The position numbers and the translations under genes are program-made. Shown here piece by piece: positions 18,318-25,125 of a stretch of 64,000 nt of DNA (the first letter of the stretch is position 1; each line of letters starts with the position of its first letter). The notes under the pieces are model-generated. The model was not told where the DNA came from. It saw only the letters and a program-made list of their open reading frames with translations, and did not search any database. The DNA is from Bifidobacterium breve (lineage in GTDB: Bacteria > Actinomycetota > Thermoleophilia > Solirubrobacterales > Solirubrobacteraceae): positions 62,001-126,000 of the forward strand of contig CAMDBT010000001.1 in the NCBI GenBank assembly GCA_945889475.1, written 5' to 3'.

Positions 18318-20885
<2,568 letters not shown>

Positions 20886-20887
20886 AC

Positions 20888-20914
20888 AGATCTAAGTCTA
20901 GCAGACTTAGATCT
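20888..20914 (-). promoter_or_regulatory. HAIR-like HspR operator overlapping the clpB promoter
   Basis: AGATCTAAGTCT (20888-20899) and AGACTTAGATCT (20903-20914) are perfect 12-bp arms around a 3-nt centre. In it, CTAAGT-N7-ACTTAG has the arm-and-spacer geometry of the actinobacterial HAIR element (CTTGAGT-N7-ACTCAAG). On the minus strand TTGCAA and TAGACT, 16 nt apart, form a possible promoter whose spacer and -10 lie in the palindrome, so a bound repressor would block RNA polymerase. Confidence 0.7.
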
Positions 20915-20936
20915 TTTTGCAACCGGATTGCGCCGT

Positions 20937-21386
20937 TTAGGCCCTGCGGCGGCCGCGGAAGTCTGCCGCTCGAACGACGTCGGTCGATCTGCGCTCGACC
21001 GGCACCAGTTCGCCGCGCAAGGTTCGCCGCGCGGTCTCCAGCTCAGCCTCCATCTCGGCGCGGACTTCGCTGCTCTGCTGCTCGAGCTCCTCAAGCCGCC
21101 GGCGCGTAGCCTCTAACTGTTCCTCTAGCGCCAGCACTCGCTCGACGCCGGCTAGGTTTAGACCTAGCTCGGTCGTCATCTCCTGAATCCGACGCAGACG
21201 GTCAACATCGGTCTGCGAGTAGAGCCGCGTCCCCTTCGGCGAGCGCTGAGGGGAGATCAGCCCGCGGTGCTCATACATGCGCAACGTTTGGGGGTGCATC
21301 TCAGCCAGTTCAGCGGCGACCGAGATCATAAAAACGCCGCGACCGGAGTCGACCGTGATCCGCGTTGTGGTTCTGCGCGTCGCCAT
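20937..21386 (-). CDS. hspR: Heat-shock repressor HspR (MerR family)
   Basis: HspR represses dnaK and clpB operons by binding HAIR elements, with DnaK as co-repressor in Streptomyces. The 149-residue protein has the MerR-type helix-turn-helix (FMISVAAELAEMHPQTLRMYEHRGLI, residues about 19-45). It continues with SPKGTRLYSQTDVDRLRRIQ, then a coiled coil (residues 75-125), and ends in basic residues. The ATG at 21386 overlaps the dnaJ stop as TGATG; a GTG one codon earlier is equally possible. A 48-nt gap with the inverted repeat separates it from clpB. Confidence 0.94.
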   Translation of the reverse strand: MATRRTTTRITVDSGRGVFMISVAAELAEMHPQTLRMYEHRGLISPQRSPKGTRLYSQTDVDRLRRIQEMTTELGLNLAGVERVLALEEQLEATRRRLEELEQQSSEVRAEMEAELETARRTLRGELVPVERRSTDVVRAADFRGRRRA

Positions 21387-22483
21387 CACTTGTCCGAGCT
21401 GCCGCCGAATAGTCTGGCTCTTGGATCGCCACCGTTCATCGTCTCCGACAGCTTCGCGACCAGCTCGGACTGCTCGTCGGTCAGCTCCGAGGGCACCTCG
21501 ACGACGAAGCGGTAGTGGATGTCGCCGCGCGTCTCCTTCTTGCCTGCGCCGAGCCGCGGCGGCCCCTCACCGCGCAGCCTCTGGACGCTGCCGCTGCGCG
21601 TGCCGGGTGGAACGCGCAACGTCTTGCGACCATCGAGCGTCGGCACCTCAACCTCGGCGCCGAGCAGCTGCTCGGGCACGGTCAGCGCCACTTCGACCTC
21701 CACGTTGTCGCCCTTGCGGCGGAAGATCAACGACGGCGCGACGCGTGTGATCACGTAGAGGTCGCCGTCCGGGCCGCCGTGACCACCGGGCTCGCCGCGG
21801 CCGGCGATCCGCACCCGCGAGCCTTCCTTGACGCCGGCCGGAATGTTGACCTTCAGCCGCTTCGTCTTCTCCACTTGGCCGCTACCGCCGCAGGTGCGGC
21901 AGGGATCTTCGATGATCGCACCGCTTCCTTGACAGCGCGCACACGGCTGGGAGATCGAGAACAGCCCCTGCCCCTGCGAGTCGATGCCGCGCCCTTGGCA
22001 GCTTGAGCAGACCTTCGGCGAGGTGCCTTCAGCAGCGCCGGTGCCGTGGCAGCTGCCGCAGGCACCAGGGATCGAGAGCGTGACCGGAACCTGAATCCCT
22101 GCCAGAGACTGGTCGAAGCTGAGGCGCACCTCAGTTTCAAGATCGCGGCCGCGCGTCGGGCGCGGGCGGCCAGCGCGGCCACGCGGCTCGTCGCCACCGA
22201 AGAAGCTGGAAAAGATGTCGCCAAAGGTTGAGGGGTCAAAGGGAACTCCGCCGGGGCCGCCGCCACTGAACATGCCGCCGCTGTCGTATTGCTTGCGCTT
22301 CTCGGGGTCGCCGAGGATGTCGTAGGCGGCCGACACCTGCTTGAAGCGCTCCTCGGCTGCCTCGTTACCGGGGTTCTGGTCCGGGTGGTTCTCGCGCGCG
22401 AGCTTGCGATAGGCCTTCTTGATCTCAGGGGCCGACGTCTTCTTGTCGACGCCAAGAACCTTGTAGAGGTCGGGCTGAGCCAT
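21386..22483 (-). CDS. dnaJ: Chaperone DnaJ (type I Hsp40)
   Basis: DnaJ delivers substrates to DnaK and stimulates its ATPase. The 365-residue protein has a J-domain with the HPD motif (ENHPDQNPG), a Gly/Phe region (SGGMFSGGGPGG), and four zinc motifs of the CxxCxGxG type (CGSCHGTG, CSSCQGRG, CARCQGSG, CRTCGGSG). A C-terminal substrate domain follows. The ATG at 22483 (MAQPDLYKVLGV) is chosen over an upstream frame extension that lies in grpE. Actinobacteria often have two dnaJ paralogues; this is the one in the dnaK operon. Confidence 0.96.
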   Translation of the reverse strand: MAQPDLYKVLGVDKKTSAPEIKKAYRKLARENHPDQNPGNEAAEERFKQVSAAYDILGDPEKRKQYDSGGMFSGGGPGGVPFDPSTFGDIFSSFFGGDEPRGRAGRPRPTRGRDLETEVRLSFDQSLAGIQVPVTLSIPGACGSCHGTGAAEGTSPKVCSSCQGRGIDSQGQGLFSISQPCARCQGSGAIIEDPCRTCGGSGQVEKTKRLKVNIPAGVKEGSRVRIAGRGEPGGHGGPDGDLYVITRVAPSLIFRRKGDNVEVEVALTVPEQLLGAEVEVPTLDGRKTLRVPPGTRSGSVQRLRGEGPPRLGAGKKETRGDIHYRFVVEVPSELTDEQSELVAKLSETMNGGDPRARLFGGSSDK

Positions 22484-22493
22484 CGCTACTCGC

Positions 22494-23089
22494 CTAAGCG
22501 GCGACGACGACCTTCGCCGCGCGCAGAACCTCGTCGCCAATCATGTATCCCTGTTCGTAGATCTCGATCACCGTGCCCGCCTGCTGCCCTTCGGCTGGCT
22601 GCTGTGCAACGGCCTCGTGCTGGTGCGGACTGAACGCTTCGCCAACCGCCGCGTCACGGACGATGCCAACCCGCGCTAAGGCCGCAAGCAACTCCTGCTG
22701 AACCCGCTGAAGTCCACCGACCAGTTCAGGGCTTGAGCTCTCCGGGTGAGCCTCGGCGGCATTGATCGCGCGGTCGAGGTTGTCGAGCGTCGGCAAGAGC
22801 TCGCGCGCAAGCTTTGCGATCCCACGCTGCTCAGCCTGAGCAGCGTCGCGGCTCGTCCGCTTGCGAAAGTTGTCGAGCTCGGCGACCGAGCGCAGCCACT
22901 GATCCTTGTAATCGGGCTCAACCGGCTCCGCGTCAACAGCGGGCTCTTGGCCGGTGACGGCGTCTCCTTCGATCACCTCCGCCGGGGCGTCGGCTTCGAT
23001 CACCTCCGCCTGGGCGTCGGCTTCGGCCTGCGCGAGCTCAGCCTCGGGCGGCGCCTGCTCGGGCACCGTCGGGTCCGATCCACTCTGCA

Positions 23090-23090
<1 letters not shown>
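22494..23090 (-). CDS. grpE: Nucleotide exchange factor GrpE
   Basis: GrpE releases ADP from DnaK. The 198-residue protein has a long acidic N-terminal tail with an imperfect repeat (AEVIEADAPAEVIEGDA). The coiled coil with DQWLRSVAELDNFRKRT follows, and then the C-terminal beta domain (IVRDAAVGEAFSPHQHEAV, YEQGYMIGDEVLRAAKV). The ATG overlaps the dnaK stop as TAATG. Confidence 0.96.
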
Positions 23091-24991
<1,901 letters not shown>

Positions 24992-25044: not shown

Positions 25045-25063
25045 CTAAGCACCCAAAGTTTAG
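25045..25063 (-). promoter_or_regulatory. Second HAIR-like operator upstream of dnaK
   Basis: The 19-nt element CTAA-N11-TTAG has the same outer bases and spacing as the core of the clpB palindrome, though its inner arms are less symmetric. It lies about 55-70 nt before the dnaK ATG, downstream of a possible -10 TAAGAT at 25080-25085 on the minus strand. A roadblock type of HspR repression would fit. Confidence 0.45.
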
Positions 25064-25125
25064 GGCAGCCAGCCACAAAATCTTAGTGGTAGTGTAGCAG
25101 ATCTTTGGAGGCTTCGAAGCGCCGC

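What the first reader, a model, noticed from the sequence alone, without database searches (positions are those of the whole stretch)
20888..20914. Perfect 12-bp palindrome over the clpB promoter, a variant HAIR element
The geometry (arms, N7 spacer) equals the HspR operator, but the arm sequence is CTAAGT rather than CTTGAGT, and the symmetry reaches far out to AGATCT. It covers the -10 and lies 2 nt from the start codon. hspR is 50 nt upstream, so HspR would also bind next to its own 3' end.
Basis: partly seen in the sequence, partly recalled or inferred. Interest (0 to 1): 0.5.

Follow-up and report, generated by a model that had tools for sequence, protein, structure and literature searches.

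The report
Order-wide variant HspR heat-shock operator
The perfect palindrome in front of the chaperone gene clpB is very probably the DNA site where the heat-shock repressor HspR sits, spelled in a way that this little-studied order of bacteria shares and that differs from the textbook site.

Summary
Confirmed: 20888-20914 is a perfect 12-bp inverted repeat with a 3-nt centre, 2 nt before clpB. Relatives (Solirubrobacterales) share RATCT-N11-ACTNAGATYT: the geometry of HAIR (7-mer, N7, 7-mer) but half-site ACTNAGA instead of ACTCAAG. In the loci of named records the site precedes dnaK in 40 of 48 and clpB in 31 of 47; shuffles 0 of 480 and 0 of 470; classical HAIR within 2 mismatches 0 of 48 and 0 of 47. 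It precedes lon in 17 of 30 family loci, and it stays with clpB where clpB lies kilobases from hspR. dnaK, clpB and lon are the three established Streptomyces HspR targets (PMC2687793, passages). The real dnaK operator is 25078-25103. Across the phylum two half-site classes go with HspR residues 56 and 41, but shared ancestry is not excluded. Binding was not tested. Best reading: HspR operator repressing a probably leaderless clpB promoter.

The parts
20888..20914 (.). clpB operator: perfect 12-bp inverted repeat, variant HspR site GATCTAAGTCTGCTAGACTTAGATCT
20895..20900 (-). possible -10 of clpB, TAGACT, inside the operator (weak, below the scan threshold)
   Evidence: read; scan negative
20917..20922 (-). 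possible -35 of clpB, TTGCAA, 16 nt before the -10
   Evidence: read; TTGCAA or TTGTAA in most of the aligned close relatives
18318..20885 (-). clpB
   Evidence: TIGR03346 over cut-off
20937..21389 (-). hspR, repressor gene
   Evidence: NF047375 118.9 bits, cut-off 105
21386..22483 (-). dnaJ
   Evidence: NF008035 over cut-off
22494..23090 (-). grpE
   Evidence: GrpE models, best match below its cut-off (108 of 152 bits)
23090..24991 (-). dnaK
   Evidence: NF001413 over cut-off
25078..25103 (-). dnaK operator GATCTGCTACACTACCACTAAGATTT, right half intact, left half degenerate
   Evidence: 0 mismatches to the order pattern, (G000:C1:87078-87103); aligned
25091..25096 (-). possible -10 of dnaK, TACACT, inside the operator
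   Evidence: read; same place TAYAMT-like in relatives

Best explanation
The palindrome is the HspR operator of clpB. A dimer of HspR, made from the gene just upstream, contacts the half-sites TCTNAGT and ACTNAGA across an N7 centre. It covers the -10 of a promoter that would start transcription within about 2 nt of the ATG (probably a leaderless mRNA), and so holds clpB off in unstressed cells. The same repressor holds dnaK-grpE-dnaJ-hspR through a less symmetric copy whose left half contains the -10, and lon through a third copy. Shown: the sequence, its conservation in the order, its company with dnaK, clpB and lon, the lack of classical HAIR. Inferred: binding by HspR, repression, leaderless start. 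Taken over from Streptomyces: DnaK as corepressor and release on heat shock.
For: Order pattern RATCT-N11-ACTNAGATYT with up to 1 mismatch: 15 of 15 genomes hit, reversed control 0 in all 15. Named-record loci: dnaK 40 of 48, clpB 31 of 47, shuffles 0 of 480 and 0 of 470. Order genomes, looser pattern: dnaK 43 of 45, clpB 20 of 31, shuffles 39 of 1520. Site stays with clpB at 2 to 13 kb from hspR in L179, L180, L181, L203, L205. lon: 17 of 30, shuffles 0 of 600. hspR next door, over the HspR cut-off. Same three targets as S. coelicolor HspR (PMC2687793). HAIR geometry kept (PMC6102357).
Against: No binding or expression data. 16 of 47 and 11 of 31 clpB upstreams, and 13 of 30 lon upstreams, lack the site. 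6 of 14 positions differ from classical HAIR. Of 16 hit loci whose flanks I read, 2 had no heat-shock gene that I could recognise, and other hits were not examined. One lon upstream (L324) looks HAIR-like instead, 2 mismatches.
Confidence: 0.9

Rival explanations
1. The palindrome works in RNA: in transcripts that run on from hspR it folds into a hairpin beside the clpB start codon and acts as a thermometer or a terminator.
For: The strand folds into a 12-pair hairpin, z -2.55, 3 of 200 shuffles fold as well; 2 nt from the ATG.
Against: In relatives the site sits 0 to 75 nt before clpB and 18 to 101 nt before dnaK while its inner geometry is fixed. The dnaK copies are not hairpins (4-7 of 9 pairs). 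No terminator call and no Rfam match.
Confidence: 0.04
2. Another repressor, such as HrcA, binds here instead of HspR.
For: The arms differ from the HAIR of Streptomyces.
Against: The one CIRCE-like site within 3 mismatches in the genome stands before a groES-like ORF, not here (the reversed control also gave 1 hit). The variant follows dnaK, clpB and lon, the HspR set, and shares HAIR geometry.
Confidence: 0.04
3. Chance palindrome without function.
For: 2 of 30 shuffled windows hold a perfect 12-bp inverted repeat.
Against: Core identical in 6 of 9 genus relatives with clpB upstream held, and near-identical in the other 3; order-wide recurrence against 0 in shuffles.
Confidence: 0.01

Closest known systems
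HAIR, the HspR operator of Streptomyces (CTTGAGT-N7-ACTCAAG)
   Same: Two 7-mers over N7; before dnaK, clpB and lon; inner ACT...AGT core; hspR in the dnaK operon.
   Different: Outer half-site bases: ACTNAGA here against ACTCAAG; 6 of 14 positions differ at the clpB site; one site per promoter evident here, three copies reported at S. coelicolor dnaK (PMC6102357, passage).
HAIR of Bifidobacterium breve (AAAsTTGAGysw-N6-CTCAAsTTTT)
   Same: Symmetry reaching into outer A/T bases; dnaK and clpB targets (PMC9004370, passages).
   Different: Inner arms of the Streptomyces type.
HAIR-like sites of Campylobacter jejuni and Helicobacter pylori HspR
   Same: Imperfect 21-bp repeats bound by HspR, one arm often poorer, as at dnaK here (PMC7464140, PMC6102357, passages).
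   Different: Extended footprints of 70-80 bp there; most conserved bases CTT in the outer arm, not TCT.

Membership tests
HspR repressor (NF047375), for the neighbouring protein | score over the curated cut-off | tested here: met
   118.9 bits against 105
HAIR operator | two 7-bp arms over N7 | tested here: met
HAIR operator | arm sequence CTTGAGT / ACTCAAG | tested here: not met
   6 of 14 positions differ; no classical HAIR within 1 mismatch in this genome
HAIR operator | stands before dnaK, clpB and lon | tested here: met
HAIR operator | bound by HspR | not testable with these tools
   needs gel shift or footprint
CIRCE (HrcA operator) | TTAGCACTC-N9-GAGTGCTAA | tested here: not met
   the only hit within 3 mismatches is on contig C21 before groES
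RNA thermometer | hairpin at a fixed place over the ribosome site | tested here: not met
   distance to clpB varies 0-75 nt in relatives; no Rfam match
Intrinsic terminator | GC-rich stem followed by a T run | tested here: not met
   none called; 4 T follow the stem on the + strand only

The most novel reading that the evidence does not exclude
HspR of Actinomycetota comes in two DNA-reading classes: one reads ACTCAAG (Streptomyces type; Arg at residues 56 and 41 in window numbering), the other ACTNAGA (Leu or Met at 56, mostly not Arg at 41) and is spread over several deep lineages. In both, the dnaK operator often lends one half-site to a promoter hexamer (-35 TTGACA or the -10), while clpB tends to carry the symmetric copy, giving the two genes different repression strength.
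Probability: 0.5. Interest if true: 0.5.

Novelty: new variant of a known kind. Interest (0 to 1): 0.36.

Why it matters
It gives a usable operator consensus for the heat-shock regulon of Solirubrobacterales, where a search with the classical HAIR finds none before dnaK or clpB in the loci examined. It also makes a testable proposal about which HspR residues read the outer half-site bases, and shows a core stress regulon keeping its gene list while its operator spelling shifts.

Tried and rejected
CTAA-N11-TTAG as the consensus: it occurs exactly twice in the 1.65-Mb, 82% complete genome, before clpB and before dnaK (reversed control 15), which looked striking. The dnaK copy is absent from 7 of 7 genus relatives examined, so I dropped it.

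Loose scans were noise: a merged HAIR pattern gave 44 hits in the window against 45 expected; the 2-mismatch own-genome scan gave 14 against 12 in the reversed control. Phylum-wide pattern counts are not usable as they stand: the variant hits 85 of 149 genomes, many AT-rich with control hits too, and classical HAIR within 1 mismatch hits 28 of 149 while the reversed control also hits dozens of genomes. I therefore used dnaK upstreams instead.

HspR specificity code as proven: counts are strong, but residue 56 changes only twice on the DnaK+DnaJ tree and the half-site six times; independent pairs 2 same, 0 opposite, 3 without difference, p 0.5. The order is oversampled (45 of 121 upstreams), and 18 of 121 were left unclassified and out of the counts. 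My first classifier misassigned a few sites by ties (for example L057, L077); one search replaces it.

Terminator, Rfam element, RNA thermometer.

Full report
What is there. The window lies in a Solirubrobacterales genome: the closest named records are Solirubrobacterales MAGs, with Conexibacter, Paraconexibacter, Solirubrobacter and Patulibacter further out. The - strand carries dnaK, grpE, dnaJ, hspR, clpB in that order. The 51 nt between hspR and clpB hold AGATCTAAGTCT-AGC-AGACTTAGATCT at 20888-20914. It is the only perfect inverted repeat with non-overlapping arms of 12 or more and a gap up to 10 in the window; 2 of 30 dinucleotide shuffles contain one.

What it is. I fetched the hspR region of the 56 relatives that had an HspR match (of 60) and added the window. 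Aligned upstream regions show one shared motif. At dnaK it reads GATCTGCYATAMT-nnn-ACTNAGATTT, with a -10-like hexamer inside the left half. At clpB it is a fuller palindrome, AATCTNAGT-N7-ACTNAGATT. Of 9 genus relatives whose clpB upstream was held, 6 have a core identical to the window's and 3 differ at one to several bases. The geometry, two 7-mers over N7, is that of HAIR, CTTGAGT-N7-ACTCAAG (passages of PMC6102357 and PMC7464140). The half-site differs in its outer bases: ACTNAGA for ACTCAAG; 6 of 14 positions differ.

How specific it is. RATCT-N11-ACTNAGATYT with up to one mismatch hits 15 of 15 Solirubrobacterales genomes tried, 2 to 8 strand hits each (a palindrome counts twice), and the reversed control never. 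In this genome it finds the clpB site on both strands, the dnaK site (25078-25103) and one site before lon on contig C15. Loci of named records (80, of which 48 gave a dnaK and 47 a clpB upstream; a few lie outside the order): dnaK 40 of 48, clpB 31 of 47; shuffles 0 of 480 and 0 of 470; classical HAIR within 2 mismatches 0 of 48 and 0 of 47. Order genomes with a looser pattern: dnaK 43 of 45, clpB 20 of 31, shuffles 39 of 1520. The two sets share some genomes. Misses are real: 16 of 47 and 11 of 31 clpB upstreams lack the site.

Company it keeps. I read the flanks of 16 hit loci: 10 stand before an ORF that begins like this clpB, 2 before lon, 1 upstream of a groEL-like ORF, 1 at the start of an msrB-like ORF, 2 without a gene I could place; gene names here are by eye except lon. 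Where clpB lies 2 to 13 kb from hspR (L179, L180, L181, L203, L205) the site is with clpB. In the family, 33 of 41 genomes gave a lon match; of the 30 held as loci, 17 carry the site within 1 mismatch of one of two forms, 0 of 600 shuffles, and 1 is HAIR-like within 2 mismatches. In S. coelicolor dnaK, clpB and lon are the established in vivo HspR targets (rRNA and tRNA sites were added there), and HrcA controls groES/EL1 (PMC2687793, abstract and passages). In this genome the one CIRCE-like site within 3 mismatches stands before a groES-like ORF; the reversed control also gave one hit, so its place is the argument. The regulon is thus the core Streptomyces one with a different operator spelling.

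How it most likely works. TTGCAA (20922-20917), 16 nt, TAGACT (20900-20895) is the best promoter reading, 8 of 12 matches and below the scan threshold. It puts the start within about 2 nt of the ATG, and I see no Shine-Dalgarno sequence just before it in the aligned genus sequences, so a leaderless mRNA is likely (inference). An HspR dimer on 20888-20914 would cover the -10 and the start point. That DnaK is a corepressor is known for S. coelicolor (title only, in the reference list seen) and is assumed here. In 12 genomes with both sites found, the clpB site is more symmetric than the dnaK site in 10, equal in 1, less in 1, which may set different affinities.

Wider view. Of 149 phylum genomes sampled, 131 have HspR over the cut-off. 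I fetched 80 of these, up to three per family by my choice; 76 gave a dnaK start, and classical HAIR within 1 mismatch stands before dnaK in 11 of 76. With the 45 of the order, 121 upstreams were classed: 67 ACTNAGA, 36 ACTCAAG, 18 unclear. Many in both classes have CTTGACA before the right half-site, so that the left half doubles as a -35 hexamer; outside Solirubrobacterales this is also seen in named Thermoleophilia, Gaiellales and Coriobacteriia records (L168, L176, L177). HspR residue 56 is L or M in 63 of 67 of the first class and R in 35 of 36 of the second; residue 41 is R in 9 of 67 and 36 of 36. That 56 lies in the wing and 41 at the end of the recognition region is my recall of MerR-family structure; the alignment to GlnR is. 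On the tree the association rests on two changes of residue 56 and is not significant (p 0.5).

Novelty. HspR, HAIR and the dnaK-clpB-lon regulon are well known. Searches: HspR with Thermoleophilia and heat shock, 0 papers; HspR with class and genus names, 890 papers hold two or more terms, none of the 20 listed holds HspR; HspR specificity and comparative regulons, 15 of 247 and 15 of 4,059 listed; HspR with half-site letters, 20 of 199 listed, by titles unrelated. None of the listings pointed to this operator; the library holds open papers only. A correlation study of MerR-family proteins and sites treats metal regulators and does not mention HspR (PMC5045206, passages).

Noticed in passing
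25045-25063: A second CTAA-N11-TTAG stands in the dnaK leader, one of only two in the genome, but it is absent from 7 of 7 genus relatives examined, so it is probably chance.
   Followed up: yes
L007, 1501-1521 (G000:C15:34858): Variant HspR site with 1 mismatch to the order pattern about 20-30 nt before lon in this genome.
   Followed up: yes
L296, 1501-1527 (G000:C21:27467): CIRCE-like TTGGCACTC-N9-GAGTGCCAA before a groES-like ORF, so HrcA probably controls groE in this genome.
   Followed up: partly
L195, near 1501-1526 (G041:C1:137572): In an order relative the variant site stands 487 nt upstream of a groEL-like ORF and is followed at once by TTGACA; groE may have joined the HspR set there.
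   Followed up: no
L204, near 1501-1526 (G028:C1:1062919): Nearly perfect palindrome of the variant overlapping the ATG of an msrB-like ORF.
   Followed up: no
L002, 1501-1521 (G000:C4:51749): Symmetric relative TCAAAGT-N7-ACTTTGA in this genome near a nuclease-like ORF; no tRNA there.
   Followed up: partly
L101 and L139: Public MAG records titled Bifidobacterium breve hold hspR 81-91% identical to this Solirubrobacterales one, so the titles look wrong.
   Followed up: no
L324, 94 nt before its lon match: A lon upstream in this family with CTTGAGC-N7-ACTCAAA, close to classical HAIR, hinting that HspR here may tolerate both spellings.
   Followed up: no
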